From an uncultured Clostridia bacterium (lineage in GTDB: Bacteria > Bacillota > Clostridia > Christensenellales > UBA1750), in contig CALWRM010000042.1 of the NCBI GenBank assembly GCA_944383925.1, positions 1 to 32,408 on the forward strand: a stretch of DNA of 32,408 nt, read 5' to 3'. The notes below the pieces were generated by a model, which saw only the letters and a program-made list of their open reading frames with translations, ran no database searches and was not told where the DNA came from. Both the position numbers and the translations under genes were made by a program. This document shows positions 4,338 to 32,408 of the stretch, piece by piece. How positions within the stretch are numbered: position 1 is the stretch's first letter; the number at the start of each line of letters is the position of its first letter.

Positions 4338-4339
4338 GT

Positions 4340-5227
4340 CTAAGCCTCCTCCTGCGGATCCGCGTGGAACATGGTGCCGATGCCCTCGTCGGAGAACATC
4401 TCGATGAGGATGGAATGGGGGATGCGGCCGTCGATCATCACGGCCTTGCGCACGCCGCCGCGCACCGCGTCGGCGCAGCACTCGACCTTGGGGATCATGC
4501 CGCCGGTGATGGTGCCGTTCTCGATGAGGGCGGGCAGCTCGCCGATGGACACGGAGGAGATGAGGGAGTTTTCGTCCTTGGTGTCGCGCATCAGGCCGCG
4601 GATGTCCGTCATGAGGATGATGTTTTCCGCATGCAGGGCCGTGGCGATGCAGGCCGCGGCGGTGTCGGCGTTGATGTTGTAGACCTGGCCCTGCTCGTCC
4701 ACGCCGACGGTGGCCACCACGGGGATGTAGCCCTCGGCCATGGCGTTGAGGATGGGCGAGGTGTCCACCTCCGTGATGCGGCCGACGAAGCCAAGGTCCA
4801 CGCTGCCGGTCAGCTTTTCCGCCTTGATCATGGACCCGTCCAGCCCGCAAAGGCCCAAGGCCCTGCCGCCGCAGCCGGCGATGAGCTTGACCAGGTCCTT
4901 ATTGGTCTTGCCGCAGAGCACCATCTGCACCACCTTGGCCGTTTCCTCGTCGGTATAGCGCAGGCCGTTGACGAAGCGGGACTCGATGCCAAGGGCCTTG
5001 AGGGTGGCGGTGATTTCCGGACCGCCGCCGTGGACCAGCACCACCTTGATGCCCACCAGGTTGAGCAGCACGATGTCGCTCATCACGGCGGCCTTGAGCT
5101 CCTCGTTGGTCATGGCGTTGCCGCCGTATTTGACCACGACCACCTTGCCGGTGTACTTCTGAATGTAGGGAAGGGCAGCGGTCAAGACGCTGGCCTTCAT
5201 GGAATTGGTCAAGCTTTGCGTGGACAT
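4340..5227 (-). CDS. argB: Acetylglutamate kinase
   Basis: This kinase phosphorylates N-acetylglutamate, the second and usually controlling step of the pathway. The product is 295 residues. Amino-acid kinase family motifs are seen: KVVVVKYGGNAM (28-39), VLVHGGGPEI (64-72) and the ATP-site segment YNINADTAAACIA. The start at 5227 has GGAGGAG 9 nt upstream. Two features match the arginine-inhibited class known from Thermotoga and Pseudomonas: an extra N-terminal helix before the first strand (MSTQSLTNSMKASVLTAALP) and a C-terminal MFSDEGIGTMF segment. I therefore infer feedback inhibition by arginine; this is not proved by sequence. The gene is 46 nt after argJ and 2 nt before argD. Confidence 0.96.
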   Translation of the reverse strand: MSTQSLTNSMKASVLTAALPYIQKYTGKVVVVKYGGNAMTNEELKAAVMSDIVLLNLVGIKVVLVHGGGPEITATLKALGIESRFVNGLRYTDEETAKVVQMVLCGKTNKDLVKLIAGCGGRALGLCGLDGSMIKAEKLTGSVDLGFVGRITEVDTSPILNAMAEGYIPVVATVGVDEQGQVYNINADTAAACIATALHAENIILMTDIRGLMRDTKDENSLISSVSIGELPALIENGTITGGMIPKVECCADAVRGGVRKAVMIDGRIPHSILIEMFSDEGIGTMFHADPQEEA

Positions 5228-5273
5228 AGGGCTATGCTCCTCCGATCTCAAGTCCGTTTCTGGGCCGGCAGGC

Positions 5274-6494
5274 TCAGGTTCTGTAGTCGCCGTTGATGCG
5301 CACATAGTCGTAGGTCAAGTCGCAACCCCAGGCCGTGGCCTTTCCGTCGCCCTGCTTCATGTCGATGCGGATTTGGATTTCCTTTTCCAGCAGGACCTCC
5401 TTGGCCTTTTCCTCGGAAAACTCCACGCCGAAGCCGTCCTTGCACACCTGCACGCTGCCCTTGACAGAGGAAAGGGTCACGTCGATGGTGGAGACGCTGA
5501 ACTGGGCGTCCGCATAGCCGATGGCGCAGAGAATGCGGCCCCAGTTGGCGTCCGAGGCGAACATGGCCGTCTTGAACAGGCTGGAGCAGATCACGGACTT
5601 GGCCACGGTCTTGGCGCAGGCCGCGTCCGGCGCACCGGTGACCAGGCATTCCAGCAGGCGGGTGGCGCCCTCGCCGTCGCCGGCCAGGAGCTTTGCGATG
5701 GTCACGCAAACCTGTTTGAGGGCCGCGATGAACTTTTCCAGCGCGGGCCCCTCGCCCTGGATCCTGGGGTTGCCCGCCAAACCCGAGGCCAAAATGGCCA
5801 CCATATCGTTGGTGGAGGTATCCCCGTCCACGGAGATCATGTTGTAGCTCTGCTGCACGACCTCCTTCAGGGCCAGGGCCAGCGGTTCCCTGTCGATGGC
5901 CACGTCGGTGGTGATGAAGGAGAGCATGGTGGCCATGTTGGGATGGATCATGCCGGACCCCTTGGCGATGGCGCCGATGCGCACGGCCTTGCCGTCCGGC
6001 TCGAGCGCCACGGCCACCTCCTTGTGGATGGTGTCGGTGGTCATGATGGCCTGGGCTGCGGCCAAGCCGCCCTCCTTGGACAGCTGGGGCGCCAGGGTGC
6101 GGATGCCCTGCTCGATGGGGGTTAGATCCAGGGGCTGGCCGATGACGCCGGTGGAGGCCACGATGATGTCCTTGGGCGTAAGGCCCAGGGCTTCCGCCGC
6201 CAGGGCCGCCATGGCCTTGGCCTTCTGCACGCCGTCGGCGTTGCAGGTATTGGCGTTGCCGGAGTTGCAGACCACGGCCTGGGCCGTGCCGTCCTTGAGG
6301 TGCTCCCTCGTCACGGCGATGGGCGCGCCGAACACCTTGTTCTGGGTGTACATGGCCGCGGCCGTGCAGGGCGTTTCGCAGGCGATCATGGCCAGGTCCT
6401 TCTTATCCTTGTTCTTGCGGACGCCGCAGTGCAGTCCGCCGGCCACAAAGCCCTTGGGCGCGCAAACGCCGCCTTCTATTTGCGTAAAAAGCAT
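5274..6494 (-). CDS. argJ: Bifunctional ornithine acetyltransferase / N-acetylglutamate synthase
   Basis: ArgJ moves the acetyl group from N-acetylornithine to glutamate, releasing ornithine and remaking N-acetylglutamate, so the pathway runs as a cycle. Many ArgJ enzymes also use acetyl-CoA to prime the cycle. The product is 406 residues, normal for the family. The self-cleavage site is KGSGMIHPNMATML; Thr189 becomes the N-terminal nucleophile of the beta chain. The oxyanion-hole motif is ASTGVIGQPL (113-122). The C-terminus is YVRINGDYRT, typical of ArgJ. The start at 6494 has AGGGGGAG just upstream. The lack of argA and argE in the operon fits the cyclic route. Whether the enzyme is mono- or bifunctional cannot be read from the sequence with certainty. 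Confidence 0.97.
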   Translation of the reverse strand: MLFTQIEGGVCAPKGFVAGGLHCGVRKNKDKKDLAMIACETPCTAAAMYTQNKVFGAPIAVTREHLKDGTAQAVVCNSGNANTCNADGVQKAKAMAALAAEALGLTPKDIIVASTGVIGQPLDLTPIEQGIRTLAPQLSKEGGLAAAQAIMTTDTIHKEVAVALEPDGKAVRIGAIAKGSGMIHPNMATMLSFITTDVAIDREPLALALKEVVQQSYNMISVDGDTSTNDMVAILASGLAGNPRIQGEGPALEKFIAALKQVCVTIAKLLAGDGEGATRLLECLVTGAPDAACAKTVAKSVICSSLFKTAMFASDANWGRILCAIGYADAQFSVSTIDVTLSSVKGSVQVCKDGFGVEFSEEKAKEVLLEKEIQIRIDMKQGDGKATAWGCDLTYDYVRINGDYRT

Positions 6495-6512
6495 GGTCCT
6501 TCTCCCCCTTCG

Positions 6513-7460
6513 CTATTGCAGGTAGTGGTCCTCGGGCAGGCCGAGGGCGATGTTCATGTTCTGGACCGCCGCGCCGGAGGCGCCCTTGCCCAGGTTGTCG
6601 AACACGCAGACCACGGTCATCAGCTCGTCGTTGCCCAGCACGTAGATGCCCATGCGGTTGGTGCCGGTGAGCAGGTTGGCGGGCAGGAAGCCGTCCTGCG
6701 GCGCGGGCTCCACGCGCAGGAAGGCGGCGCCCTGGTAATGGGCCGTATAGATCTCCTCCAGCTGTTTCCTGCTGGGATGGCCCTTGAGATGGGAGGCCAC
6801 CAGGGGCAGGCTCACCGCCATGCCCGCGTAAAAGTCGCAGACGATGGGGTTGAACACCGGCGGCGTTGCCAGCCCCAGCTGGGCCTGGATCTCCGGCAGA
6901 TGCTTGTGGTTGAGGCCCAGGCCGTACTGCCTGGGGCTGTCCAGGGCCGCATCCCGATCCGCGGCCTCGTACTGGGCGATCATCTTCTTGCCGCCGCCGC
7001 TGTAGCCCGTGATGGAATGGGCGCTGAGGGGATAGTCCTTGGGCAGCACGCCCGCCTGCACCAGGGGATAGGCGGCCGCGATAACGCCGGAGGCGTGGCA
7101 GCCGGGGTTTGCGATGCGCTTGGAGGCGGCGATGGCCTGCCGATGGGCCGGGGACAGCTCCGCAAAGCCGTAGGCCCAGCCGGGGCTGGTTCGGTGGGCG
7201 GTGGAGGCGTCGATGAGGATGGTGTCCTGGTTTTCCATCAGCTCCGCCGCCTCGACGGCGGCCTTGTCCGGCAGGCAGAGGAAGGCGACGTCCGCGGCGT
7301 TGAGCAGACGGCGGCGTTCCGCAAGGTCCTTGCGCTTGTCCGGATCGATGTCCAGCAGCTCCACGTCCGGCCTTTGCTTCAGCCTGTCCTCGATCTGCAG
7401 GCCCGTGGTGCCCTCCCTTCCGTCGATGAACACCCGAAACCTCTTCTTGTCCGCGCTCAT
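6513..7460 (-). CDS. argC: N-acetyl-gamma-glutamyl-phosphate reductase, short (uncommon) form
   Basis: ArgC reduces N-acetylglutamyl phosphate to the semialdehyde with NADPH, the third step of the pathway. The product is 315 residues, shorter than the common form of about 340-350. Its N-terminus RVFIDGREGTTGLQIEDRL and the following LLNAADVAFLCLPD match the second ArgC subgroup as I know it. The catalytic cysteine is in ANPGCHASGVIAAAYPL, near residue 139. The GYSGGGKKM loop follows. The gene starts four bases inside the end of argH (ATGA-type overlap), so it is translationally coupled to argH, and it is 18 nt upstream of argJ. All expected catalytic elements are present; nothing suggests damage. 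Assignment to the short subgroup is by recall of the motif pattern. Confidence 0.95.
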   Translation of the reverse strand: MSADKKRFRVFIDGREGTTGLQIEDRLKQRPDVELLDIDPDKRKDLAERRRLLNAADVAFLCLPDKAAVEAAELMENQDTILIDASTAHRTSPGWAYGFAELSPAHRQAIAASKRIANPGCHASGVIAAAYPLVQAGVLPKDYPLSAHSITGYSGGGKKMIAQYEAADRDAALDSPRQYGLGLNHKHLPEIQAQLGLATPPVFNPIVCDFYAGMAVSLPLVASHLKGHPSRKQLEEIYTAHYQGAAFLRVEPAPQDGFLPANLLTGTNRMGIYVLGNDELMTVVCVFDNLGKGASGAAVQNMNIALGLPEDHYLQ

Positions 7461-8827
7461 ACAAGCTTCCTCCTCGCGTTTTCGATCTGCTTGGCCACCG
7501 CCTCGGCGGCCGGGCCGCCATACACCTTGCGCAGCGACACGCAGCTGAGCAGGTCGATGGCCTGGTACACGCCATCGTCAAAGAGGGGGCTCAGGGCTTG
7601 GTACTCCGACAGGGGCAGGGTCTCCAGGGTGAGGCCCTTTTCGATGCACAGGGCCACCAGCTGGCCGGTGATCTTGTAGGCGTCGCGGAAGGGCAGGCCC
7701 TTCTTCACCAGGTAGTCGGCGCAGTCCGTGGCGTTGATGAAGCCGCCGGCCGCGGCCGCTCGCATGTTTTCGGGATAGAAGGTGGCGCTGTTCCACATGG
7801 GCGGCAGCACGGACAGGCAAAGCTTGACCGTGTCCACGATGTCGAAGATGGCCTCCTTGTCCTCCTGCATATCCTTGTTGTAGGCCAGGGGCAGGGCCTT
7901 CATCATGGTCAACAGGGTCATGTGGTGGCCGTAGACCCTGGCGGTCTTGCCGCGGATGAGCTCGGCGATGTCCGGGTTCTTCTTCTGGGGCATGATGGAC
8001 GAGCCCGTGGAGAAGCGGTCGGACAGGGCCATGAAGCGAAACTCCGAGGAGAACCAGAGGATGATCTCCTCGGCCATGCGGCTTAGGTGCATCATGAGGA
8101 TGGACAGGTCCGCGGACAGCTCCAGCACGAAATCCCGGTCGGACACGCCGTCCAGGGAGTTTTCCGTTACGCCCGCAAGCCCGAGCTTTTCCGCCACCAG
8201 CTGGCGATCCAGCGGGTAGGTGGTGCCGGCCAGGGCACCGGAGCCCAGGGGCGAGAGCCTGGTGCGCTCCCGGGTCTGCTGCAGGCGTTCCCGGTCGCGC
8301 AGCAGCATCTGCACATAGGCCATTAGCTGGTGGCCCAGGGTGATGGGCTGGGCCCTTTGCAGGTGGGTGTAGCCGGGCATCACGGTCGTAAGGTGTTCCT
8401 GGGCCAGGTCGCACAGGCAGGCGCAGAGCGCCTCCACCAGCTCGATCAGCTCCTCCTCCTGGTTGGCCAGGTACAGCCGCACGTCCAGGGCCACCTGGTC
8501 GTTGCGGCTTCTGCCGGTGTGCAGCTTCTTGCCAAGGTCGCCAAGGCGGCTGGTCAGAACCTGCTCCACAAACATGTGGATGTCCTCCCCCTGGGGGTCG
8601 ATGGCCAGCCTGCCCTCCTTCCGGTCCTGGAGAATCTGCTCCAGGCCCTCCACAATCTTGCGGCTTTCCTCCTCCTCCAGCACGCCCACGACGCCCAGCA
8701 TGGTCGCGTGGGCCATGGAGCCCTGGATATCCTCCTCAAACATGCGGCTGTCAAAGCCGATGGACTGGTTCAAGCGGTTGAGGCCCTCGTCCACGTCGCC
8801 GCTGAGGCGGCCCGCCCACATCTTCAT
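7457..8827 (-). CDS. argH: Argininosuccinate lyase
   Basis: ArgH splits argininosuccinate into arginine and fumarate, the last step. The product is 456 residues, typical for the fumarase/aspartase superfamily member. The start MKMWAGRLSGDVDEGLNRLN is characteristic. HTGRSRNDQVALD (103-115) and GYTHLQRAQP (152-161, with His155) are substrate-binding regions. The flexible signature loop GSSIMPQKKNPD carries the catalytic Ser277. AAGGGGAAAAG precedes the ATG. The gene is 87 nt downstream of argG and overlaps argC by 4 nt. Standing next to argG, it completes citrulline to arginine conversion; the fumarate can return to central metabolism. No missing residue was noticed. Confidence 0.97.
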   Translation of the reverse strand: MKMWAGRLSGDVDEGLNRLNQSIGFDSRMFEEDIQGSMAHATMLGVVGVLEEEESRKIVEGLEQILQDRKEGRLAIDPQGEDIHMFVEQVLTSRLGDLGKKLHTGRSRNDQVALDVRLYLANQEEELIELVEALCACLCDLAQEHLTTVMPGYTHLQRAQPITLGHQLMAYVQMLLRDRERLQQTRERTRLSPLGSGALAGTTYPLDRQLVAEKLGLAGVTENSLDGVSDRDFVLELSADLSILMMHLSRMAEEIILWFSSEFRFMALSDRFSTGSSIMPQKKNPDIAELIRGKTARVYGHHMTLLTMMKALPLAYNKDMQEDKEAIFDIVDTVKLCLSVLPPMWNSATFYPENMRAAAAGGFINATDCADYLVKKGLPFRDAYKITGQLVALCIEKGLTLETLPLSEYQALSPLFDDGVYQAIDLLSCVSLRKVYGGPAAEAVAKQIENARRKLV

Positions 8828-8914
8828 CGTTTCTTTTCCCCTTTTTTAGAAAGTGAGCGCCCCCGTGCGCATTTCGCGCGAAGGCGCCCTTTGCAACCGG
8901 CGTGTCTGCGCGGT

Positions 8915-10129
8915 TTACTTCTGCTTCTTCTCCTCCAGCATGGCCTTGATGCGGATGGGCAGGCCGAAGAGGCGGATGAAGCCCTTGGAGTCGAACTGGT
9001 CGTAGACCTGGTCCTCGCCGAAGGTGGCGATGTCCTCGTCGTAGAGGGAGTCGGGGCTGGTCATGCCGGCGCCGATGATGTTGCCCTTATAGAGCTTCAG
9101 CTTCACCTGGCCGTTGACGGTCTCCTGGGTCTTGTCCACGAAGGCGGACAGGGCCTCGCGCAGCGGGGTGTACCACTGGCCGTTGTAGACCAGGTCCGCA
9201 AACTCCAGGGCCATCTTCTGCTTGTAGTGCAGGGTCAGCTTGTCCAGGCAGATCTGCTCGAGCATGTCGTGGGCCTTGTAGAGGATGGTTCCGCCGGGGG
9301 TTTCGTACACGCCGCGGGACTTCATGCCCACCAGGCGGTTTTCCACCATGTCGCACAGGCCGACGCCGTGCTTGCCGCCCAGGGCGTTGAGCTTTTCAAT
9401 GAGCTTGACGCCGTCCATCTTTTCGCCGTTGAGGGAGACGGGCACGCCCTTTTCAAAGCCGATGGTCACATACTCCGCCTCGTCCGGGGCCGCCCAGGGG
9501 GTGACGCCAAGCTCGAGGATCTTGTCGTAGTTGGGCTCGTTGGCGGGGTCTTCCAGGTCCAGGCCCTCATGGGAGAGGTGCCAGAGGTTCTTGTCCTTGG
9601 AATAGTTGGTCTCCCTGGTGATGTTCAGGGGGATGTTGTGCTTTTCGGCGTATTCGATCTCGTCCTCGCGGCTCTTCATCTCCCAGGTGCGCCAGGGGGC
9701 GATGATGTCCATGTGGGGGGCGTAGGCGGCGATGGCCAGCTCGAAGCGGACCTGGTCGTTGCCCTTGCCGGTGCAGCCGTGGGCGATGGCGTCCGCGCCC
9801 TCGGCCTTGGCGATCTCGGTGATGCGCTTGGCGATGATGGGGCGGGCAAAGGAGGTGCCCAGCAGGTACTGGTTTTCATACACGGCGCCGGCCTTGAGGG
9901 TGGGGAATATATATTCGTTGACAAACTCGGCGCGCAGGTCCTCGATGTAGAGCTTGGAGGCGCCGGTCTTGAGGGCCTTTTCTTCCAAACCGGAAAGTTC
10001 CGCGCCCTGGCCGACGTCCGCGGCCACGGCGATCACTTCGCAACCGTAGTTTTCCTTCAGCCAGGGGATGATGACGGAGGTGTCCAGGCCGCCGGAATAG
10101 GCCAACACAACCTTGTTGTACTTCTTCAT
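8915..10129 (-). CDS. argG: Argininosuccinate synthase
   Basis: ArgG joins citrulline and aspartate using ATP, the seventh step of arginine synthesis. The product is 404 residues, normal for the family. The PP-loop ATP pyrophosphatase motif [10 protein letters not shown] (10-19) is at the N-terminus. Further conserved stretches are [17 protein letters not shown] and the TYPGG-equivalent [15 protein letters not shown] chose the start at 10129 because GAAGGAG lies 8 nt upstream and because ArgG proteins begin this way; the in-frame ATG 87 nt upstream would fall in the promoter leader. It is the first gene of the operon, with a consensus promoter about 75 nt upstream, so arginine repression most likely acts here. 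Confidence 0.97.
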
Positions 10130-10204
10130 GCTTTTTTCTCCTTCGCAGTGCATATTCTGCCCGGCCTCGGCCCTGCCGGGCGGGGCGCCGCGCGTTATGC
10201 TTAA

Positions 10205-10232
10205 ATTATACATCATTCCCCGCCGCTGTCAA
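10205..10232 (-). promoter_or_regulatory. Sigma-A promoter of the arginine operon
   Basis: On the minus strand a perfect TTGACA (10227-10232) and a perfect TATAAT (10205-10210) are separated by 16 bp. Transcription would start near 10197, giving an argG leader of about 70 nt. It is the strongest promoter match in the window, as expected for an operon that is then held down by a repressor. Confidence 0.85.
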
Positions 10233-10240
10233 CGGGTTTG

Positions 10241-10258
10241 CACGCATTTTTAAGCGTG
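10241..10258. promoter_or_regulatory. Palindrome next to the argG -35 element, candidate operator
   Basis: CACGCATTTTTAAGCGTG is an 18-bp imperfect palindrome with 5-bp perfect outer arms. It lies 8 bp upstream of the -35 element. The half CACGCAT recurs 32-42 bp away at 10283-10289. It is a candidate site for an ArgR/AhrC-type repressor, although the arms deviate from the classical TGAAT/ATTCA half-sites. Confidence 0.4.
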
Positions 10259-10302
10259 ATTTTGTTATATATACTTAAAAAACACGCATATTCATAGATT
10301 AT

Positions 10303-10318
10303 TGCGAATGTTTATGCA
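10303..10318. promoter_or_regulatory. ARG-box-like palindrome, candidate ArgR/AhrC operator
   Basis: TGCGAATGTTTATGCA reads TGCAT-AAAC-ATTCG-CA on the minus strand. It agrees with the ARG box halves TGAAT and ATTCA at most positions. It lies about 70 bp upstream of the argG -35 element and about 25 bp upstream of the divergent promoter. ArgR hexamers typically bind pairs of such boxes; the partner here may be the palindrome at 10241-10258. Confidence 0.45.
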
Positions 10319-10341
10319 TTCCTCTTCCTTCCTTTTTCCCC

Positions 10342-10371
10342 TTGTGGGCGGGGGCACCGCGCTGGTATACT
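10342..10371 (+). promoter_or_regulatory. Candidate promoter of the TSUP exporter gene
   Basis: TTGTGG (10342-10347) and TATACT (10366-10371) are 18 bp apart. If it is used, the transcript begins near 10378, after the in-frame ATG at 10302. Translation would then have to start at the TTG at 10443. Confidence 0.5.
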
Positions 10372-10442
10372 TAAAAAAGCGCGGCGCGCAGCTTGTCCCA
10401 TGTCCAAAGCAAAAGGCCGCGCGCGGAAAGAAGGGGTTGTCT

Positions 10443-11222
10443 TTGGAGCTTACGCCGCTGCTGTTGCTGACCGTCTGTCCCCTGGTGTTTCTGGCCGGCT
10501 TTGTGGACGCCGTCGCCGGGGGTGGGGGCCTGATCTCCCTGCCGGCCTATTTGCTGGCAGGCCTGCCCGCCCATCTGGCCGCCGGAACCAACAAGTTCGC
10601 CATGAGCCTTGGCACGCTGACGGCCGCCCTCAAATACCTGCGCTCCGGCAAGATCGCCCTGCGGCAGGCGGCGTTGGCCGCGCTGTTTTCCTTTGGCGGC
10701 TCCGCCCTGGGCACCGCCTTGGCCCTGCACATCTCCGAAACGGCCCTAAAGGCCATCATCCTGTTGGCCCTGCCGGCGGTGGCGCTGTTTCTGTTTTTCC
10801 GCAAGGGCTTTGGCCAGGAGCCCGCGCCCAAGTCCCTGCCCCTGTGGCGTGAAACCCTCTACGCCTGCGGCATCGGCCTGTGCATCGGGGCCTACGACGG
10901 TCTGGTCGGGCCCGGCACCGGAACCTTCCTCATCCTCTGCTTCACCTCGCTGTTGGGCTATGACCTCATCCTCTCCTCCGGCTGCGCCAAGCTGGCCAAC
11001 CTGGCCTCGAACCTGGCCTCCCTGGTCCTGTATTGGATCAACGGCAAGGTGTTCTTCGCCTTGGCCATCCCGGCCGCCCTTTGCTGCATGCTCGGCGGCT
11101 ATCTGGGCGCGCGCCTGGCGGTGCGCGGCGGCGCGAAATGGGTGCGGCTGTTCATCTTCCTGGTGCTGGGCCTGCTGTTTGTGAAGACCGGCTACGAGCT
11201 CGTGCAGGGCCTGATGGCGTAG
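10443..11222 (+). CDS. TSUP-family membrane transporter (TauE/SafE type)
   Basis: This is a probable anion exporter of the TSUP family (sulfite, sulfonate or other organic anions); the substrate is not known. The product is 259 residues with about seven to eight hydrophobic segments. Family hallmarks are the N-terminal repeat FLAGFVDAVAGGGGLISLPA with AGTNKFA, and the second repeat with GAYDGLVGPGTGTFLI. I chose the TTG at 10443 because AAGGGG lies 6 nt upstream and because the encoded start fits the family length of about 250. The ATG at 10302 would add 47 residues and lie upstream of the likely promoter. The gene is divergent from argG, with 313 nt between starts and ARG-box-like sites inside, so joint control by arginine is possible. 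A terminator follows at once, so it is transcribed alone. Confidence 0.85.
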   Translation: MELTPLLLLTVCPLVFLAGFVDAVAGGGGLISLPAYLLAGLPAHLAAGTNKFAMSLGTLTAALKYLRSGKIALRQAALAALFSFGGSALGTALALHISETALKAIILLALPAVALFLFFRKGFGQEPAPKSLPLWRETLYACGIGLCIGAYDGLVGPGTGTFLILCFTSLLGYDLILSSGCAKLANLASNLASLVLYWINGKVFFALAIPAALCCMLGGYLGARLAVRGGAKWVRLFIFLVLGLLFVKTGYELVQGLMA

Positions 11223-12476: not shown

Positions 12477-14937
<2,461 letters not shown>

Positions 14938-25272: not shown

Positions 25273-25875
25273 ATGCATACCCTGTTATCCGCCATCGTTT
25301 ATCTTGCCGTTTCCGTCCTTGTCGGCTGCCTGTTCGGGCTGGTTCCTTTCTTCCTCGGCCGCTACCGGTACCGGCCCAACATGGGCCGCTGGGGCTTTAT
25401 CTGGTGCGGCGTTGCCGGACCGTTCCTGCTTCCCTTCCTGGTGATGCTCGGCTTCGTGGTGGGCATCCTGGTGTCGGAGCAGGATTCCCGGCCGCCCCGC
25501 GAGCCTCAGCCCGTTGCCTATCCCCGCCCGGCGCCGCGCCGCGTCGCCGAGCCCATAGCCCAGGGAGGCCTGACGCTCACCTGTCTGGCCGGTCCCCTTC
25601 GCGGCCAAAGCTATCCCATCGGCGCCGCCGGCCTGATGTTCGGCCGGGACACGGATTGCCACGTCCGCTTTCCCTCGCAAAGCACCGGCATCAGCCGCCA
25701 CCATTGCGCCGTCCGTTGGCAGCAGGGCGTGCCCGTGTTGGTGGATCTCAACTCCGCCTACGGCACCTACCTGGGCGACGGCAAGCAGCTGCCTCCCAAC
25801 TACCCCACGCCCGTCGGCCCCGGCAGCCGCTTCTACCTAGGCGGCCCCGCCAACCTGTTCCAAATCACGGTTTAG
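25273..25875 (+). CDS. Membrane-anchored FHA-domain protein
   Basis: The product is 200 residues. Two hydrophobic helices (about 6-28 and 43-66) enclose a short basic loop (GRYRYRPNMGR), so the C-terminal part should lie in the cytosol. After a Pro/Arg-rich linker comes an FHA domain (about 100-200), a phosphothreonine reader. Its binding residues are Gly124-Arg125 (MFGRDTDC), Ser141-Arg142 with His144 (GISRHHC) and the DLNSAYGTYLGDG loop, which matches the classical NGT region. AAAGGAGG lies 10 nt before the ATG. It is the first gene of a run of co-oriented signalling genes and is followed after 40 nt by another FHA gene. It probably brings phosphorylated partners to the membrane; the partners are unknown. 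Confidence 0.88.
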   Translation: MHTLLSAIVYLAVSVLVGCLFGLVPFFLGRYRYRPNMGRWGFIWCGVAGPFLLPFLVMLGFVVGILVSEQDSRPPREPQPVAYPRPAPRRVAEPIAQGGLTLTCLAGPLRGQSYPIGAAGLMFGRDTDCHVRFPSQSTGISRHHCAVRWQQGVPVLVDLNSAYGTYLGDGKQLPPNYPTPVGPGSRFYLGGPANLFQITV

Positions 25876-25915: not shown

Positions 25916-26545
25916 ATGGAATTTCAGAATCAGCTGACGCCCTGCCCCAATGGCCATTATTACAACGCCGCCCTGCACGCCAAGTGCCCCATTTGCAACG
26001 AGTCCGCAGCGGCCTCCATGCCCCCCACGGAGCCCTTCTCCAGCGCCCCCGGCAGCGTCACCCAACCCATCGACGCCGCATCTTCCATGGGAAGCGGCAA
26101 CTTCGGCCAGACCGAGCCGCCCTTCGCGGATAGCCACGTTCCCTCGGACCACAGCCCCTTCACCTACACCTCCATCGGCGGAGACATGGGCCCCGAGGGC
26201 GGCATCGCGCCCGTGGTCGGCTGGCTGGTGTGCATCGAAGGTCCCATGCGCGGCAACGACTACCGCCTGCATGCCGGCTACAACTACATCGGCCGCGAGA
26301 GCGGGGACATCCGCCTCACCAACGACCAACAGATCTCCCGGCAAAACCACGCCATGATCGCCTTTGACGACGCGGACAACATCTATTACGCGGGTCCTTC
26401 CGCCGGCCGCAACCTCATCAAGGTCAACGGCAAGACGGTGATCAACGCCGTGGAGCTGAACAACCACGACATCCTCTCCATCGGCACCACCAAGCTGATG
26501 TTTGTGGCGCTGTGCGGCGAGCAATTCAGCTGGAAGAAGGTTTGA
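25916..26545 (+). CDS. Zinc-ribbon FHA-domain protein with Thr-rich linker
   Basis: The product is 209 residues and soluble. The N-terminus holds a zinc-ribbon-like CPNGHYYNAALHAKCPIC (10-27) in which one of the usual cysteines is replaced by the Asn-Gly-His turn. A flexible linker of about 70 residues contains three Thr-Glu/Gln-Pro sites (Thr38, Thr49, Thr66). The C-terminal FHA domain (about 100-209) has Gly126-Arg127 (YIGRES), Ser141-Arg142 and His145 (ISRQNHA) and Asn171-Gly172. The classical S-x-NGT loop is altered to SAGRNLIKVNG. AAGGAGG precedes the ATG. The gene lies 40 nt after the membrane FHA gene and 3 nt before a PP2C gene. The layout resembles GarA/OdhI, in which a kinase phosphorylates an N-terminal Thr that the FHA domain then binds; this parallel is inference. 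Confidence 0.87.
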   Translation: MEFQNQLTPCPNGHYYNAALHAKCPICNESAAASMPPTEPFSSAPGSVTQPIDAASSMGSGNFGQTEPPFADSHVPSDHSPFTYTSIGGDMGPEGGIAPVVGWLVCIEGPMRGNDYRLHAGYNYIGRESGDIRLTNDQQISRQNHAMIAFDDADNIYYAGPSAGRNLIKVNGKTVINAVELNNHDILSIGTTKLMFVALCGEQFSWKKV

Positions 26546-26548
26546 TCG

Positions 26549-27733
26549 ATGCGCGTTGTCCAAACGATAGTTCCGTTTCTCCTTCCCAAGGCCTGCGTGC
26601 CGGCCGAGCTGGCGGGCGCGCTGCTGGGGGAAGGCTCCCCCTCCTGGACCCTGACGTGGATCCTGATCGGGCTGGCCGCCCTGCTGGCCGCCGCCCTGGG
26701 CGTCGGGATCACCCTGGTGGTCAAATCCCACCGGCAGCGCCGCCGCCAAGCCTCCTTGGAAACGGAGGGCCCCGCGCCCGACCCGTCCGGGGAGGACAGC
26801 GCCCCTTCCGCAGCGGACGACAGCCCGGCGGCGGCCGCTAAGCCGGCCAAGCGCAGGGCTTCCAAGCCCGCGAAGCTCCCCAGGGCGCGGCGGCAGGCCC
26901 AGCCCCCCAAGCCCGCGCTCAAGCCGAACACCGGTTCCCCTTCGCCGCTTCCCCCGCCCCCCGCCGAGACCGAGTCCCTGGCCGCCGCTTCCCTCCCCCT
27001 GGTGGGCAAGCTGCAGGCCCTGGGCGCCCGGCAATCCCAGCAGGATTGCTTCTCCGTTTCCCCGCCGGAGCTTTACCCCACCCACGGCCTGCTGGCCGTG
27101 GTGGCCGACGGCATGGGCGGGCTGGAGGCCGGCGACCAGGTGAGCCAAGCGGCCGTGGGCGCCATGATGAACACCTACTTCACCCTGCACGGGGACGAGC
27201 CGCCCCAGCAGCGGCTGCTGTTCCTGTTGCAGGCCGCCAACGGCGCCGTCAACCACATGCTCGGCCCCGAGCGCATCGGCCAGAGCGGTTCCACCCTGGC
27301 GGCGGGCCTGCTGTTGGACCATCGCTTTTACTTCGTCTCCGTGGGGGATAGCCGCATCTGCCTCTACCGCGACGGAGCGCTGTACCAGCTCAACCGCGAG
27401 CACGTCTACCGCCACGAGCTGGAGCTGCGCGCCGTCAACGGCGAGGGATCTCTGGAGGCCGCGTCCACCCACCCGAGGGCTTCGGGCCTGACCAGCTACC
27501 TGGGCATGGGCCAGCTGCGATGGATCGACCAGTCCGAGCAGCCCGTGCTGGCGCGCCCCGGCGACCGCTTCCTGCTGATGAGCGACGGGGTATACAACGC
27601 CCTGAGCGAGCAGGAGCTGTGCCACGCCCTGGCCCTGGAGGCTCCCAAGGCCGCCAAGGCCCTGGGCCAGATGGTGAGCGCCAAGGCCTGGCCCGGCCAG
27701 GACAACTACACCGCTGTCATCCTACAGTGCTGA
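26549..27733 (+). CDS. Membrane-anchored PP2C-type Ser/Thr phosphatase
   Basis: The product is 394 residues. One hydrophobic helix (about 34-58) is followed by a basic stretch (KSHRQRRRQ), so the rest lies in the cytosol. A linker of about 85 residues rich in Pro, Ala and Lys leads to a PP2C domain (about 150-394). Metal-site residues are Asp166 (SQQDCF), Asp187 (VADGMGG), Asp267 (VGDSRI), Asp346 (MSDGVYN) and Asp385-Asn386 (QDNYTAV), so the enzyme should be an active Mn/Mg-dependent phosphatase. It starts 3 nt after the zinc-ribbon FHA gene. It probably reverses the action of the kinases encoded downstream, close to the membrane. A long disordered tether of this kind suggests that it works on a partner some distance from the membrane. 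Confidence 0.9.
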   Translation: MRVVQTIVPFLLPKACVPAELAGALLGEGSPSWTLTWILIGLAALLAAALGVGITLVVKSHRQRRRQASLETEGPAPDPSGEDSAPSAADDSPAAAAKPAKRRASKPAKLPRARRQAQPPKPALKPNTGSPSPLPPPPAETESLAAASLPLVGKLQALGARQSQQDCFSVSPPELYPTHGLLAVVADGMGGLEAGDQVSQAAVGAMMNTYFTLHGDEPPQQRLLFLLQAANGAVNHMLGPERIGQSGSTLAAGLLLDHRFYFVSVGDSRICLYRDGALYQLNREHVYRHELELRAVNGEGSLEAASTHPRASGLTSYLGMGQLRWIDQSEQPVLARPGDRFLLMSDGVYNALSEQELCHALALEAPKAAKALGQMVSAKAWPGQDNYTAVILQC

Positions 27734-27765: not shown

Positions 27766-28479
27766 ATGATGGACTTGGCAAGCTATTCCGACCGGGGAGG
27801 CCGGGCGGAGAACGAGGATAGCGTCCGCGAGCTGCGGCAGGACCCGGACCGGCTATGCCTTGTGGTGGCCGACGGCCTGGGCGGCCATGGCGGCGGAAGC
27901 CTGGCCTCCAGCACGGCCGTGGAGGTCATCTGCGGCGCCTGGCCGGGCACGGCCGACGTGGAGGACCTGACGGACATGGTGCTGCGGGCCAACCGGGCGG
28001 TCCTGTCCAAGCAGCTCCCCGACTGCTGCATGAAGACCACGGTGGCCCTGCTGGCCCTGGAAGGCGCCAAGGCCGCCTGGGCCCACGTGGGGGATACGAG
28101 GCTCTACCACTTTTACCAGGGCCGGCTGGACTTTCAAACCAAGGACCATAGCGCTTCCCAGGTGGCCGTGCTGTTGGGCGAGATCACGCCGGACCAGATC
28201 CGCTTCCACGTGGATCGCAGCCGCATCCTGCGGGCCCTCGGGCAAAAGGACGACATGCGCGTGGAAACCAAGGACCTGGTCCTCTCCCCTGGGCGCCACG
28301 CCTTCCTGCTGTGCTCCGACGGCTTTTGGGAGTACGTGCTGGAGGCGGAAATGGTCCAGGACCTGGCCAAGGCCGGCAGCGCCGCCGCTTGGCTGGATCT
28401 CATGCGCGCCCGGCTGGCCCAGCGCGCCCCCGAGGACAACGACAACAACACGGCAGCCGCCGTTTTGCTTGACATCTAG
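27766..28479 (+). CDS. Soluble PP2C-type Ser/Thr phosphatase
   Basis: The product is 237 residues, a minimal PP2C domain with no membrane segment. Motifs in order: YSDRGGRAENEDS (7-19), Asp36 in VADGLGGHGGG, Asp110 in HVGDTRLY, Asp185 in CSDGFWEY and the closing DNDNNTAAAV. All metal ligands are present, so it should be active. The start is either of two adjacent ATG codons at 27766 and 27769, with GGGGGAA upstream. It is the second phosphatase in a row, 32 nt after the membrane-anchored one. The two differ clearly in sequence, so they are not a recent duplication and may have different targets or locations (cytosol against membrane). Confidence 0.9.
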   Translation: MMDLASYSDRGGRAENEDSVRELRQDPDRLCLVVADGLGGHGGGSLASSTAVEVICGAWPGTADVEDLTDMVLRANRAVLSKQLPDCCMKTTVALLALEGAKAAWAHVGDTRLYHFYQGRLDFQTKDHSASQVAVLLGEITPDQIRFHVDRSRILRALGQKDDMRVETKDLVLSPGRHAFLLCSDGFWEYVLEAEMVQDLAKAGSAAAWLDLMRARLAQRAPEDNDNNTAAAVLLDI

Positions 28480-28503: not shown

Positions 28504-29961
28504 ATGAAAAAGCGTTTCTTGGCCCTAATCCTTAGCTGTTTGGTTTTTCTGCTGGCCCTTCCTGTGCCGGCGTTCGCCTCGGTCCAGATCGCTTCGGCCG
28601 CCGACGCGGCCAACGGCGTGGTGCAGATCTACAGCGAGGTCACGCTGTCCAACGGCGTGAGCAGAAACTCGGTGGGCACGGGCTTTGGCGTCGGCATCGC
28701 GGGCGAGGCCACCAACATCTTCGTCACCAACGCCCACGTGGTCACGGAGGAAAACGACGACGGCAGCTTCACCACCGCCCAACGGGTTTACATCATGCTG
28801 GGAGCGGACTGCGTCACCGTCACCGAGCGGGCCCTGCTGGTGGACGGCCAGTTCATCGTCGACGAGGAGCTGCTGCCGATGCTCTACGACGCCAACACCA
28901 ACAAGATGGTGGCCTGCGACGTCGTTTACATCTCCCAGGAGCACGACATCGCCGTGCTGCAAACCACCGAGCCGGTGCCCGGCCGCGTGGCCCTGCCCCT
29001 GGCGGAAAGCTCCACCGACGCCTCCATCGGCGAACAGATCTATGCCTTGGGATACCCGGCCGTGAGCGACCAAGTCTCCTCGTCCACCGGCCTGATCGAC
29101 TCCGGCAACCTCTTTATCGGCTACCCCGTCTACACCTACTCCTACTCCTACAGCTCGGAAGTCAGCGACGTGACGGTGACCACCGGCGCCATCTCCCGAT
29201 TCACCACCATCACAAGCCAATCCAACGCCAAGGTCATTCAGCACGACGCCACCATCCACGGGGGGAACTCCGGCGGGCCGTTGGTCAACGCCAAGGGCGT
29301 GGTCATCGGCGTGAACAACAGTGGTGCCGCAAGCGTCGATAGCATCAACTACGCCGTCTACGTGGATTACGTGCACGAGGCCTTGGAGGAGTTGGGCATC
29401 TCGACCTCCTCGGGCTTCTCCTTCCTGGTGGTGCTGTACATCCTGCTGCCCGTCCTGCTCCTCACCGCCGTGGTGGTCTTCCTCGTGCTGCGGCGCAGGC
29501 ATAGCGCGCCGGTCGCCCCGGCGGTTGCCGCTTCCGGCAATCCCGTGGATTCCACCGCCGGCGGCACCACGGTCGGCTCCCCTACCGCGACGCCTGCCTT
29601 CGTCCCGCCCGCTCCAGCGGCCGTGCCCGCGCAGGACAACCTGCTGCGCCTGCAGGGCGTATCCGGCACCTTTGCCGGCAGGCGTTTCCCCATGGCCGAC
29701 ACGGTGCGCATCGGCCGCGACCCCAGCCTCAACCAGCTGTCCTATCCGGCCAACGTCAAGGGCATCAGCCGCCAGCATTGCGAGCTGCGCCTGGTGAACG
29801 GCCAGGTGTACCTCAAGGATCTTGGTTCCACCTACGGCACCTTCCTGGGTTCCGGCCAGCGGCTGGCCGCCAACCAGCCCGTGCTGCTCAAGCCCGGCGA
29901 CCGCTTCAGCCTGGCTTCGCCCCAAGAAACCTTCGTCTTGCTCCGCAAGGGAGGGGAATAG
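28504..29961 (+). CDS. Exported trypsin-like protease joined to a cytosolic FHA domain
   Basis: The product is 485 residues. A signal peptide (1-26, MKKRFLALILSC...PAFA) is followed by an extracellular trypsin-like protease domain. Its catalytic triad is His78 (TNAHVV), Asp148 (EHDIAVL) and Ser256 (HGGNSGGPL), as in HtrA/DegP proteins. A single membrane helix (about 305-329, ending LRRRH) leads to a Pro/Ala-rich linker and a C-terminal FHA domain (about 380-482). That domain has Gly404-Arg405, Ser422-Arg423, His425 and GSTYGTFLG. There is no PDZ domain. AAAGGAG lies upstream of the ATG. The gene is 24 nt after a PP2C gene and 1 nt before a kinase gene. The design places proteolysis outside the cell and a phosphothreonine reader inside, so signals may cross the membrane in either direction. 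Confidence 0.9.
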   Translation: MKKRFLALILSCLVFLLALPVPAFASVQIASAADAANGVVQIYSEVTLSNGVSRNSVGTGFGVGIAGEATNIFVTNAHVVTEENDDGSFTTAQRVYIMLGADCVTVTERALLVDGQFIVDEELLPMLYDANTNKMVACDVVYISQEHDIAVLQTTEPVPGRVALPLAESSTDASIGEQIYALGYPAVSDQVSSSTGLIDSGNLFIGYPVYTYSYSYSSEVSDVTVTTGAISRFTTITSQSNAKVIQHDATIHGGNSGGPLVNAKGVVIGVNNSGAASVDSINYAVYVDYVHEALEELGISTSSGFSFLVVLYILLPVLLLTAVVVFLVLRRRHSAPVAPAVAASGNPVDSTAGGTTVGSPTATPAFVPPAPAAVPAQDNLLRLQGVSGTFAGRRFPMADTVRIGRDPSLNQLSYPANVKGISRQHCELRLVNGQVYLKDLGSTYGTFLGSGQRLAANQPVLLKPGDRFSLASPQETFVLLRKGGE

Positions 29962-29962
29962 G

Positions 29963-30988
29963 ATGGCACTCTGTCCCAACTGCGGCCATCCCAGCGAGGG
30001 AAGGTTCTGTACCCAGTGCGGCCATGCGCTGAACAAAACCTCCAGCCGCCTTTCCCTGCCCGCCGGCACCGTGCTGCGCACCCCCTCCTTCCGCTACCGG
30101 CTGGAGCGGGTGCTGGGCCAGGGCGGCTTTGGCGTCACCTACGCCGCGCAGGTGCTGGAGCTGAAGCAGCAGGTCGCCATCAAGGAATACCTGCCCATCC
30201 ACTTTTCCCTGCGCAACCCCGACAAGAGCGTCTCCCCCAAGCCGGGTATGGAGCGGGAATACGAATCCGGCGTGGAAAGCTTCAGCCACGAGGCCCAGAT
30301 GCTGGCCTCCCTACGGGGCTTCGCCAGCGTGGTCCGGGTGCACGATTGGTTTCGGTCCAACGGCACCGCCTATCTGGTCATGGAATTCCTGGAAGGCGTG
30401 CCCCTGCATCAAAAGGCCGCCCAGATGGGCGGGCGCATCCCGGCGGGAGAGCTGCTGCCCAGGTGCAAGCCGCTGATGCAGAACCTGGCCGCCATCCACC
30501 GCCAGGGCGTGCTCCATCGGGACATCACGCCGGACAACATCATGTGGATGCCCGACGGCAGGCTCAAGCTGCTGGACTTCGGCTCCGCCCGCACCATGAG
30601 CGGCAACAAGTCCATGACCGTGCTGCTCAAGCAGGGCTTCGCCCCGGTGGAGCAATACCTGACCCGCGGCCAGGGCACCTTCACCGACGTCTACTCCCTT
30701 TGCGCCACCCTCTACTACTGCCTGACGGGCGTTTCCCCCGTGGACCCCATCGAGCGCTTGGAAAACGACACCCTCGCCGCCCCCATCGGCCTGGGCGTGG
30801 CGCTGACGCCGGAGGAAAACGCGGCCATCCTCCACGGCATGGCCATCCAGCCCAAGCTGCGCACCCAGACCGTGGACGATTTGATCGCGGAGCTGTTTCC
30901 CGCCGCCCCGCCGCCCCCGCCCGCCCCGCCCCGCGCCTCCTTCCTGCGCTGGTTGGACCGGCTGTTGCAGGGGTTTGGCAAGCATTAA
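29963..30988 (+). CDS. Zinc-ribbon Ser/Thr protein kinase, soluble
   Basis: The product is 341 residues. A four-cysteine zinc ribbon (Cys4, Cys7, Cys16, Cys19) is followed by a Hanks-type kinase domain (about 40-312). Catalytic features are the glycine-rich loop GQGGFGVTY (52-60), Lys74 (VAIKEY), Glu110, the HRDITPDN loop with Asp187 and Asn192, and Asp205 of DFG. The activation segment ends in FAPVEQ in place of APE. The C-terminus is a proline run and a short amphipathic helix; there is no membrane segment. The ATG at 29963, 1 nt after the protease stop codon and behind GGAGGGG, places the zinc ribbon at the N-terminus. It probably phosphorylates the FHA partners encoded next to it. The closest relatives are other bacterial zinc-ribbon kinases, not PASTA kinases. 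Confidence 0.92.
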   Translation: MALCPNCGHPSEGRFCTQCGHALNKTSSRLSLPAGTVLRTPSFRYRLERVLGQGGFGVTYAAQVLELKQQVAIKEYLPIHFSLRNPDKSVSPKPGMEREYESGVESFSHEAQMLASLRGFASVVRVHDWFRSNGTAYLVMEFLEGVPLHQKAAQMGGRIPAGELLPRCKPLMQNLAAIHRQGVLHRDITPDNIMWMPDGRLKLLDFGSARTMSGNKSMTVLLKQGFAPVEQYLTRGQGTFTDVYSLCATLYYCLTGVSPVDPIERLENDTLAAPIGLGVALTPEENAAILHGMAIQPKLRTQTVDDLIAELFPAAPPPPPAPPRASFLRWLDRLLQGFGKH

Positions 30989-31040: not shown

Positions 31041-31058
31041 CTTGTTGTATACTACAAG
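31041..31058. promoter_or_regulatory. Palindrome over the -10 region of the second kinase gene
   Basis: CTTGTTGTATACTACAAG is an 18-bp palindrome with eight of nine pairs matching. It contains TATACT (31048-31053), a plausible -10, while no convincing -35 is visible. A repressor bound here would block RNA polymerase, so the second kinase may have its own control. Confidence 0.5.
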
Positions 31059-31113
31059 GGAGCAGCTGTTGAACATGGAAATATGCCGATGGGGAGAAAG
31101 GAGTCGATTGCAC

Positions 31114-32408
31114 GTGGCGCAGGAACCACGTTCCCCCTCTTCTGCAAACGGCCGGCAGCCGGTGGCCGAGTTCTGCCCCTACTGCATGAGCCGCGTGGAG
31201 CCCGGACAGAGCTGCCCCGTCTGCGGGCTGACCAAGGGCGCCTACACCCCCTCCCCCCATCATCTGCCCCTTGGCACCATCCTGGCGGGGCGCTACCTGG
31301 TGGGCCGGGCCCTGGGCGAGGGCGGCTTTGGCATCACCTACATCGGCTGCGACCTTCGGCTGGAGATGAAGGTCGCCATCAAGGAATACTTCCCGGTCGA
31401 CCGCGTGTCCCGCTACGCCACCAGCGACCTGTCGGTGATCAGCCGCGTGGGCACGTCCTCGCGGGACTTTGAGCTGGGCTTGAAGCGCTTCCTCTACGAG
31501 GCCAGGACCATGGCCCGCCTGGAGAAGCAGCCCCAGATCGTCATGGTCCGCGACTTCTTCGAGGCCAACAACACCGCCTACATCGTCATGGAATACGTGG
31601 AGGGCACCAACTTCATCGAGCTGGCCGCCCAGCGCGGCGGCCGCATCCCTCCCTCGGAGCTGTTCCCCCTCATCGATCCCCTCTTCACGGCCCTGAGCGC
31701 CATCCACGCCGCCGGGCTCATCCACCGGGACATCAGCCCGGACAACCTGATGCTGGAGCGCGGCTCCGTGCGCCTGCTGGATTTCGGCTGCGCCCGCGAG
31801 TCCGCCGCCCGGGGCACCGAGACCATGACCGTGGCCCTGAAGCAGGGCTATGCGCCCATCGAACAGGACCAGCGCAAGGGCCAGGGCCCCTGGACGGACG
31901 TCTACGCCCTGTCCGCCACCATCTACTTCTGCCTCACCGGCAAGGTGCCGCCCCAGTCCCTGGACCGCATCCTGGAGGACGAGCTGGTGCCGCCCCGCAG
32001 CCTCGGCGTCGAGCTGACGGAGGCCCAGGAGAAAGCCCTGCTCAAGGGCATGGCGCTCCAGCCCCGCCTGCGCTACCAGACGGTGGAGGAGCTCCACGCC
32101 AACCTCTATCCCCACGTCCCGGCCGCCGCGACCGTCCAGCCCGCCCGCGACGCCGGAACGCCGGCCGAGGAGCCCGCCCGGACCGCCTCCCCCAATGGCG
32201 AACCGCCCAGGGAACCGGCCCAAGCCGGCGCGGGCGAACCCGCCGGCGAGGCGCCCGCGGAGGCGCCGGTTCGCACCGCTTCCCTCACGGATGAACCCGC
32301 CGCCGAGACGGACGAGCCCGCCGCCGAGACGGGCGAGCCGCCCCGCCGGGCCAAGCGCCGCTGGCCTTGGCTGGCCGCGGGGGGCGCGGTGGCCCTGGCG
32401 CTGCTGCT
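31114..32408 (+). CDS. Zinc-ribbon Ser/Thr kinase with C-terminal membrane helix (cut by window edge)
   Basis: About 431 residues are visible. A zinc ribbon (Cys21, Cys24, Cys34, Cys37) precedes a Hanks-type kinase domain with GEGGFGITY, VAIKEYFP, HRDISPDN and LLDFGCAR. The activation segment ends in YAPIEQ, paralleling the kinase encoded upstream. After the domain comes a linker of about 90 residues rich in Pro, Ala and Glu, a basic stretch (RRAKRRW) and the beginning of a membrane helix (WPWLAAGGAVALALLL) at the window edge. A part outside the cell is therefore expected. I chose the GTG at 31114, with GAAAGGAG 10 nt upstream; an in-frame ATG at 31075 would add 13 residues and cannot be excluded. 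The gene lies 125 nt after the first kinase, with a palindrome in between. Confidence 0.9.
   Translation, partial: MAQEPRSPSSANGRQPVAEFCPYCMSRVEPGQSCPVCGLTKGAYTPSPHHLPLGTILAGRYLVGRALGEGGFGITYIGCDLRLEMKVAIKEYFPVDRVSRYATSDLSVISRVGTSSRDFELGLKRFLYEARTMARLEKQPQIVMVRDFFEANNTAYIVMEYVEGTNFIELAAQRGGRIPPSELFPLIDPLFTALSAIHAAGLIHRDISPDNLMLERGSVRLLDFGCARESAARGTETMTVALKQGYAPIEQDQRKGQGPWTDVYALSATIYFCLTGKVPPQSLDRILEDELVPPRSLGVELTEAQEKALLKGMALQPRLRYQTVEELHANLYPHVPAAATVQPARDAGTPAEEPARTASPNGEPPREPAQAGAGEPAGEAPAEAPVRTASLTDEPAAETDEPAAETGEPPRRAKRRWPWLAAGGAVALALL
32290..32331 (+). repeat. Two 21-bp tandem repeats in the kinase linker
   Basis: Two adjacent 21-bp units, differing at two positions, each encode DEPAAET. 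A partial third unit encodes GEP. They lie in the disordered linker before the membrane helix and each carries an acidic-flanked Thr. Confidence 0.7.

What the first reader, a model, noticed from the sequence alone, without database searches (positions are those of the whole stretch)
28504..29961. Exported serine protease fused through one membrane helix to a cytosolic phosphothreonine reader
The sequence shows a signal peptide, an intact His78/Asp148/Ser256 triad, a membrane helix near 305-329 and an intact FHA domain. HtrA-type proteases usually carry PDZ domains; here the PDZ is replaced by an intracellular FHA. Phosphorylation inside the cell could gather or switch the protease outside, or cleavage outside could release the FHA part. 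I do not know a described example of such inside-out control.
Basis: partly seen in the sequence, partly recalled or inferred. Interest (0 to 1): 0.72.

Follow-up and report, generated by a model that had tools for sequence, protein, structure and literature searches.

The report
Surface protease wired to phosphothreonine signalling
A gut-type Clostridia bacterium makes a protease that sits outside the cell but carries a phosphothreonine-reading domain inside, and it belongs to a widespread, uncharacterised gene cassette of kinases, phosphatases and phospho-readers, which suggests that surface proteolysis and internal phosphorylation are coupled across the membrane.

Summary
[quoted passage not shown] topology predictions put the two domains on opposite sides. 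It is not a one-off. I collected 58 distinct homologues. Most lie in a compact cassette: zinc-ribbon FHA protein, membrane PP2C, (second PP2C), protease-TM-FHA, zinc-ribbon Ser/Thr kinase(s). This genome holds three such cassettes, in separate clades. Catalytic residues of neighbouring kinases and phosphatases are nearly invariant, and the FHA phosphate-binding residues are kept even where some members have lost the protease triad. In Christensenella the same ectodomain is fused instead to a pseudokinase; a divergent branch sits in type VII secretion loci. The unstructured linker of the zinc-ribbon FHA partner is enriched in T-x-x-[ILV], a published FHA recognition motif (25.7% against 12.4% expected, z = 6), giving a concrete candidate ligand. 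Most likely, kinase-made phosphothreonines on that scaffold dock the FHA tail and so gather the outside protease. Direction of signalling is untested. No PDZ is present, so it is not an HtrA member. I found no published description of the cassette. New variant of a known kind; interest 0.6.

The parts
28504..28578 (+). Signal peptide / N-terminal hydrophobic segment (KKR + LALILSCLVFLLALPVPAFA)
   Evidence: hydropathy peak at residues 5-23, AxA-type site at 25/26; cleavage is inference
28600..29397 (+). Exported trypsin-like (HtrA/DegS-fold) protease domain with H78, D148, S256
   Evidence: Pfam Trypsin_2, PDB sequence and fold matches, triad conserved in most of 58 homologues
29422..29478 (+). 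Transmembrane helix, residues 307-325, positive charges on the FHA side
29497..29703 (+). Disordered Ala/Pro/Thr-rich linker (pLDDT below 50 at residues 334-377) and start of the FHA fold
29704..29913 (+). Cytosolic FHA domain with phosphate-contact positions G404-R405, S422 and H425 kept
   Evidence: Pfam FHA; conservation over 58 homologues
25273..25875 (+). Two-TM protein with C-terminal FHA (recurrent optional cassette member)
   Evidence: Pfam FHA 3.2e-13; same architecture in other loci
25916..26545 (+). Zinc-ribbon FHA protein (ZR-FHA); candidate phospho-scaffold
   Evidence: Pfam FHA 6.9e-6; within 5 kb of 44 of 58 fused proteases
25997..26209 (+). ZR-FHA linker with FHA-type Thr motifs TEPF (T38), TQPI (T49) and TEPPF (T66)
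   Evidence: sequence; family-wide T+3 [ILV] enrichment z = 6.0
26549..27733 (+). Membrane-anchored PP2C phosphatase, catalytic domain predicted cytosolic
   Evidence: Pfam PP2C_2 3.9e-13; metal-binding positions kept in 73-75 of 75 cassette PP2Cs
27766..28479 (+). Soluble PP2C phosphatase
   Evidence: Pfam PP2C_2 1.4e-9; NCBIfam Stp1-like 2.9e-39, below that family's cut-off
29963..30988 (+). Zinc-ribbon Ser/Thr protein kinase (HRD, DFG intact), starting 1 base after the protease stop codon
   Evidence: Pfam Pkinase 1.9e-29; HRD/DFG in 69 of 69 cassette kinases
31042..32408 (+). Second zinc-ribbon Ser/Thr kinase, cut off by the contig end (start codon uncertain)
   Evidence: Pfam Pkinase 1.1e-28

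Best explanation
The protein is the protease arm of a membrane Ser/Thr-phosphorylation cassette. The exported trypsin-like domain acts outside; its FHA tail lies in the cytosol. The neighbouring kinases phosphorylate threonines in T-x-x-hydrophobic motifs, chiefly in the disordered linker of the zinc-ribbon FHA protein; the PP2C enzymes remove the phosphates. The FHA tail binds these phosphothreonines, so the phosphorylation state decides whether protease molecules are gathered at, or released from, the kinase complex. That sets local protease concentration or oligomer state outside, with the kinase ectodomains as plausible neighbours or substrates. Shown here: architecture, predicted topology, kept active-site and FHA residues, conserved cassette, Thr-motif enrichment. 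Inferred: phosphorylation of those threonines, binding by this FHA, and the effect on proteolysis.
For: Topology. PP2C within 5 kb of 52 of 58 fused proteases, kinase 49, ZR-FHA 44, against 1, 5 and 1 of 53 plain trypsins. The nearest upstream cassette gene is a PP2C in 48 of 60 loci. Kinases catalytically intact 69 of 69, PP2C metal sites nearly invariant. FHA Arg/Lys405 56, Ser422 56 and His425 57 of 58. Both domains under purifying selection in all pairs with a usable estimate (dN/dS at most 0.65 for each domain). T+3 [ILV] in ZR-FHA linkers 25.7% against 12.4% in shuffles, z 6.0; acidic +3 not enriched; pTxx[ILV] is a published FHA motif (PMC8786283). Precedent for kinase, phosphatase and FHA acting on a membrane partner: PpkA-TssL-Fha (PMC3953482).
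Against: No direct evidence of phosphorylation or binding. The protease's own TM-FHA linker is also enriched (z 3.1), so the ligand could be in cis or another copy. The motif enrichment could partly reflect repeats shared by descent, although near-identical linkers were removed. Some members have a dead protease triad, so proteolysis is not essential everywhere. The plain-trypsin control comes from other taxa. Nothing sequence-based fixes the direction of signalling.
Confidence: 0.48

Rival explanations
1. Outside-in: the protease domain is mainly a sensor. It binds or cleaves an extracellular peptide or misfolded protein, as DegS does, and the change is passed through the single helix to the FHA tail, altering the kinase/phosphatase complex inside.
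For: Closest folds include DegS, a membrane-anchored sensor protease; a minority of members keep the FHA but lose the triad, as expected if ligand binding can be enough; in Christensenella the same ectodomain is fused to a cytosolic pseudokinase.
Against: The triad is intact in most members under purifying selection; no PDZ or other obvious peptide-sensing domain outside.
Confidence: 0.27
2. The protein is a structural membrane component of a larger assembly, such as a secretion machine, as the mycosin proteases are for ESX systems; proteolysis is secondary and the FHA docks the complex.
For: A divergent branch (L043, L050, L064, L183, L184) lies beside EssC, WXG100 or LXG genes and often has a lost triad; mycosins stabilise ESX complexes without needing protease activity (PMC5082899); kinases, PPM phosphatases and FHA proteins are common in novel T7SS types (PMC11217815).
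Against: No WXG100 gene found in this genome; of 11 sampled class genomes with full-length main-branch hits only one has any WXG100; no secretion genes recur among the main-branch neighbours.
Confidence: 0.13
3. The FHA is a phospho-independent anchor, binding a partner constitutively as the EssC FHA domains bind EssB, and the cassette is only co-transcribed.
For: EssC FHA domains of T7SSb lack the phosphothreonine site and bind a pseudokinase (as summarised in PMC11217815); the Asn of the S-x-N-G-T motif is Tyr in 27 of 58 members including this one.
Against: The phosphate-contact Arg/Lys, Ser and His positions are kept in 56-57 of 58, and partner linkers are enriched for FHA-type Thr motifs.
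Confidence: 0.08

Closest known systems
HtrA/DegP/DegS serine proteases (MEROPS S1C)
   Same: Trypsin-like fold, triad order, GNSGGPL motif, exported and, for DegS, membrane-anchored
   Different: No PDZ domain; C-terminal rather than N-terminal membrane anchor; cytosolic FHA; far below the NCBIfam cut-offs of HtrA/Do/DegS models
MarP (Rv3671c), membrane serine protease of mycobacteria
   Same: Membrane-tethered extracytoplasmic trypsin-like protease; NCBIfam match 4e-13 and fold match 3k6y
   Different: 49 bits against a cut-off of 250; MarP has several N-terminal helices and no FHA (own knowledge)
FHA-FHA-trypsin protein NP_811686.1 of Bacteroides thetaiotaomicron (PMC2605481)
   Same: Trypsin and FHA domains in one protein
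   Different: [quoted passage not shown] no cassette reported and no function tested there
Threonine phosphorylation pathway of the type VI secretion system (PpkA, PppA, Fha; PMC3953482)
   Same: Membrane kinase, PP2C phosphatase and FHA reader acting on a membrane protein
   Different: Output is a secretion machine; the FHA protein is not fused to a protease
LapD-LapG inside-out control of a periplasmic protease (PMC3032545)
   Same: Cytosolic signal controls an extracytoplasmic protease across the membrane
   Different: c-di-GMP instead of phosphothreonine; receptor and cysteine protease are separate proteins
Novel type VII secretion types T7SSc-j (PMC11217815) and mycosins (PMC5082899)
   Same: Kinase, PPM phosphatase and FHA proteins in one locus; mycosins are membrane-anchored serine proteases with partly dispensable activity
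   Different: No trypsin-like TM-FHA component is named in that paper; this genome shows no WXG100 gene
GarA/OdhI FHA proteins
   Same: Small soluble FHA protein with Thr motifs in a flexible segment, beside Ser/Thr kinases (analogy with ZR-FHA; own knowledge)
   Different: ZR-FHA has an N-terminal zinc ribbon, several motifs and a divergent FHA; no NCBIfam match

Membership tests
HtrA/Do protease family | Chymotrypsin-fold serine protease domain with His-Asp-Ser triad | tested here: met
HtrA/Do protease family | At least one C-terminal PDZ domain | tested here: not met
   No PDZ match in Pfam; the region after the protease is TM, disordered linker and FHA
HtrA/Do protease family | Score over curated family cut-off | tested here: not met
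   degP_htrA_DO 49 bits against 416; DegS 34 against 423
MarP family | Score over curated family cut-off | tested here: not met
   49 bits against 250
FHA domain family | FHA fold with conserved GR, SxxH and GT positions | tested here: met
   Pfam 56 bits against 20.7; residues kept in 56-57 of 58
FHA domain family | Phosphothreonine peptide binding | not testable with these tools
   needs calorimetry or pull-down
Type VII secretion component | Encoded with EssC/EccC ATPase and WXG100 proteins | tested here: not met
   No WXG100 in the genome; met only for the divergent branch L043, L050, L064 and in part L183, L184. EssC itself was not searched genome-wide
Kinase/phosphatase/FHA signalling module (TPP-like) | Active Ser/Thr kinase, PP2C and FHA reader in one locus | tested here: met
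   (catalytic residues intact; activity itself not measured)
Kinase/phosphatase/FHA signalling module (TPP-like) | Type VI secretion machine genes as output | not tested
   Not searched genome-wide; no such gene recurs among scanned neighbours
GarA/OdhI-like FHA regulators (for ZR-FHA) | Phosphorylated Thr motif in the flexible segment beside the FHA | tested here: inconclusive
   TxxPhi motifs enriched; phosphorylation unknown

The most novel reading that the evidence does not exclude
A self-contained class of transmembrane signalling system in Clostridia: a kinase/PP2C pair writes and erases phosphothreonines on a zinc-ribbon FHA scaffold, which gathers a single-pass protease through its cytosolic FHA tail, so that surface proteolysis is set by intracellular threonine phosphorylation. 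The same ectodomain was reused on a pseudokinase in Christensenella, and a related architecture within type VII secretion loci.
Probability: 0.35. Interest if true: 0.82.

Novelty: new variant of a known kind. Interest (0 to 1): 0.6.

Why it matters
Phosphothreonine signalling in bacteria is mostly known to act on cytosolic enzymes, cell-wall proteins or secretion machines. A conserved cassette that joins it to a surface protease in one polypeptide would be a new output and perhaps a way for gut Clostridia to trim or sense their surroundings. It is directly testable: cultured species (Christensenella hongkongensis, Hominifimenecus microfluidus, Anaeromassilibacillus) carry it, and the Thr motifs give defined peptides to assay.

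Tried and rejected
Chance ORF or frame artefact: rejected (Pfam, homologues, purifying selection). Degenerate active site: rejected for this protein. Type VII secretion component: rejected for this genome on WXG100 absence, kept for a divergent branch. Anti-phage defence: PADLOC hits are generic kinase and trypsin similarity and no phage record encodes a relative, so no support. The conflict systems of PMC7159879: no trypsin-TM-FHA architecture appeared in the passages read. Phmmer of the FHA part alone against PDB found nothing at E 0.001. Acidic pTxx[DE] motif: tested, not enriched.

Full report
Check of the observation. The ORF 28504-29961 is real and at the stated place. Pfam finds Trypsin_2 at residues 58-270 and FHA at 401-470, both well over cut-off, and no PDZ. 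AlphaFold2 on an alignment of 24 relatives gives mean pLDDT 80.8, with a disordered linker at 334-377 between helix and FHA. Foldseek places the protease part with DegS, DegP, HtrA1 and plant Deg1. Both routes to membrane insertion (cleaved signal or N-terminal anchor) leave the protease outside and the FHA inside.

The same genome. The window is a whole contig (C42) of a 2.38 Mb, 158-contig assembly of class-Clostridia kin. Two further contigs hold complete paralogous cassettes. C43 (L009) has ZR-FHA 5796-6350, membrane PP2C 6354-7313, protease-TM-FHA 7291-8625 and kinase 8860-11169. C12 (L010) has PP2C 3759-4814, protease-TM-FHA 4817-6163, ZR-FHA 6194-6775 and kinase 6823-8739. In a tree of 107 trypsin domains the three proteases fall in different subclades, so they are old paralogues or separate acquisitions, not recent copies.

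Distribution. Ten of 11 sampled genomes of the same family hold fused proteins. In an even sample of 292 genomes of the class, at least 13 hold a main-branch fused protein and three more a divergent one; this is a lower bound because candidates per genome were capped. Named carriers include Christensenella hongkongensis, Hominifimenecus microfluidus, Anaeromassilibacillus sp. An172, Oscillospiraceae and Coriobacteriales.

The cassette. Home-made profiles for the five domain types were run over all fetched loci. Of 58 distinct fused proteases, 52 have a PP2C within 5 kb, 49 a kinase and 44 a ZR-FHA protein; among 53 trypsins without FHA the numbers are 1, 5 and 1 (Fisher p below 1e-15 each). 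The control set is taxonomically broader, so the p-values overstate the case, but plain trypsins of this genome (L011, L012) also lack the neighbours. Cassette kinases keep HRD and DFG in 69 of 69 and PP2Cs keep metal-binding positions in 73-75 of 75. Other neighbours are mostly housekeeping genes that change between lineages, so the cassette looks self-contained.

Conservation inside the protein. In 58 homologues the triad columns are His 48, Asp 54 and Ser 49; the FHA columns are Arg/Lys405 56, Ser422 56 and His425 57. Thus a minority of members are probably pseudo-proteases with an intact-looking FHA. One of the 58, L062, has its FHA N-terminal and aligns poorly there. In all close pairs with a usable estimate, dN/dS is at most 0.65 in both domains, usually well below, and amino-acid change is fastest in the linker in most pairs.

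Swaps. In two Christensenella species the same ectodomain plus helix is fused to a truncated kinase-like domain without an HRD motif, followed by a TM helix and TPR-like repeats (L038; L039/L178). These fall inside the main clade, with full support as a pair. A separate branch (95% SH-aLRT) lies in loci with EssC-type ATPases (L043, L050, L183), WXG100 proteins (L043, L050, L064) or an LXG toxin-type protein (L184), and most of its members have lost triad residues. This genome has no WXG100 hit, and among 11 sampled genomes with full-length main-branch hits only one has any.

A candidate ligand. The ZR-FHA linkers between zinc ribbon and FHA carry short repeated Thr motifs: KTVAA/KTVGI, YTVAK, FTPTEPL, TVPI and, in this window, PTEPF, VTQPI and QTEPPF. 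FHA domains require phosphothreonine, and two ELM classes are pTxx[ILV] and pTxx[DE] (PMC8786283). Testing the first class on 29 non-redundant linkers, position T+3 is I, L or V in 52 of 202 cases (25.7%) against 12.4% in within-linker shuffles, z 6.0; the acidic class is not enriched. Protease TM-FHA linkers show a weaker signal (z 3.1); PP2C and kinase linkers do not reach significance (z 1.4 and 1.7). The tighter pattern T-x-[PAG]-hydrophobic occurs 46 times against 13 expected, but that form was chosen after seeing the data. Hydrophobic residues are also enriched at T+1 and T-3, so the motif is wider than the +3 rule. This is sequence statistics, not evidence of phosphorylation.

Mechanism. 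The parsimonious reading is a kinase/phosphatase-set docking switch: phosphothreonines on ZR-FHA (or on the protease linker or kinases) bind the FHA tail and gather the protease. Outside-in sensing, as in DegS, is the main rival. Sequence cannot choose. T6SS provides precedent for kinase-dependent FHA docking at a membrane protein (PMC3953482), LapD-LapG for inside-out control of a protease (PMC3032545), and mycosins for membrane proteases whose structural role is separate from catalysis (PMC5082899).

Comparison and novelty. By the PDZ criterion and by NCBIfam cut-offs it is not an HtrA, MarP or DegS member, though it has that fold. A trypsin with two N-terminal FHA domains was listed in 2008 (PMC2605481). 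The survey of new T7SS types describes kinase, phosphatase and FHA components but does not mention trypsin, HtrA or DegP (PMC11217815). Ten text searches of the open-access library found no description of the cassette; subscription papers and preprints were not covered. I rate it a new variant of a known kind.

Noticed in passing
L038:7962-10055, L039:7977-10154, L178:7403-9580: Christensenella: signal peptide, intact trypsin, TM, truncated pseudokinase (no HRD), second TM, TPR-like repeats; no cassette partners detected nearby.
   Followed up: partly
L043, L050, L064, L183, L184 (L185): Divergent, mostly triad-dead trypsin-TM-FHA proteins beside EssC ATPase, WXG100 or LXG genes, some also with kinase and PP2C; possibly an unnamed component of T7SS variants, mycosin-like in layout.
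   Followed up: partly
L043, L050, L064, L183-L185, protease TM-FHA linkers: Several TM-FHA linkers printed carry [DE]-T-[TS]-V-L-type motifs (ETSVL, ETTVL, GTTVL) reminiscent of the GarA ETTSV phosphosite; they look like the long linkers of this branch but were not assigned one by one.
   Followed up: no
window 25997-26209 and homologous linkers (L009, L010, L016, L027, L031 and others): Repeated Thr motifs in the ZR-FHA linker, with different lineage-specific repeat units (KTVAA, FTPTEPL, YTVAK).
   Followed up: yes
window 12477-13649, - strand: Collagen-like GPTGPTG repeat protein with a non-repetitive C-terminal domain, perhaps of exosporium type.
   Followed up: no
L062:7938-9620: Solirubrobacterales protein with the reverse order FHA-TM-trypsin, probably an independent fusion of the two domains.
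   Followed up: no
cassette kinases in L009, L010, L026 and others: Kinases bear large variable C-terminal ectodomains after the TM helix without Pfam matches; possible protease substrates or sensors.
   Followed up: no
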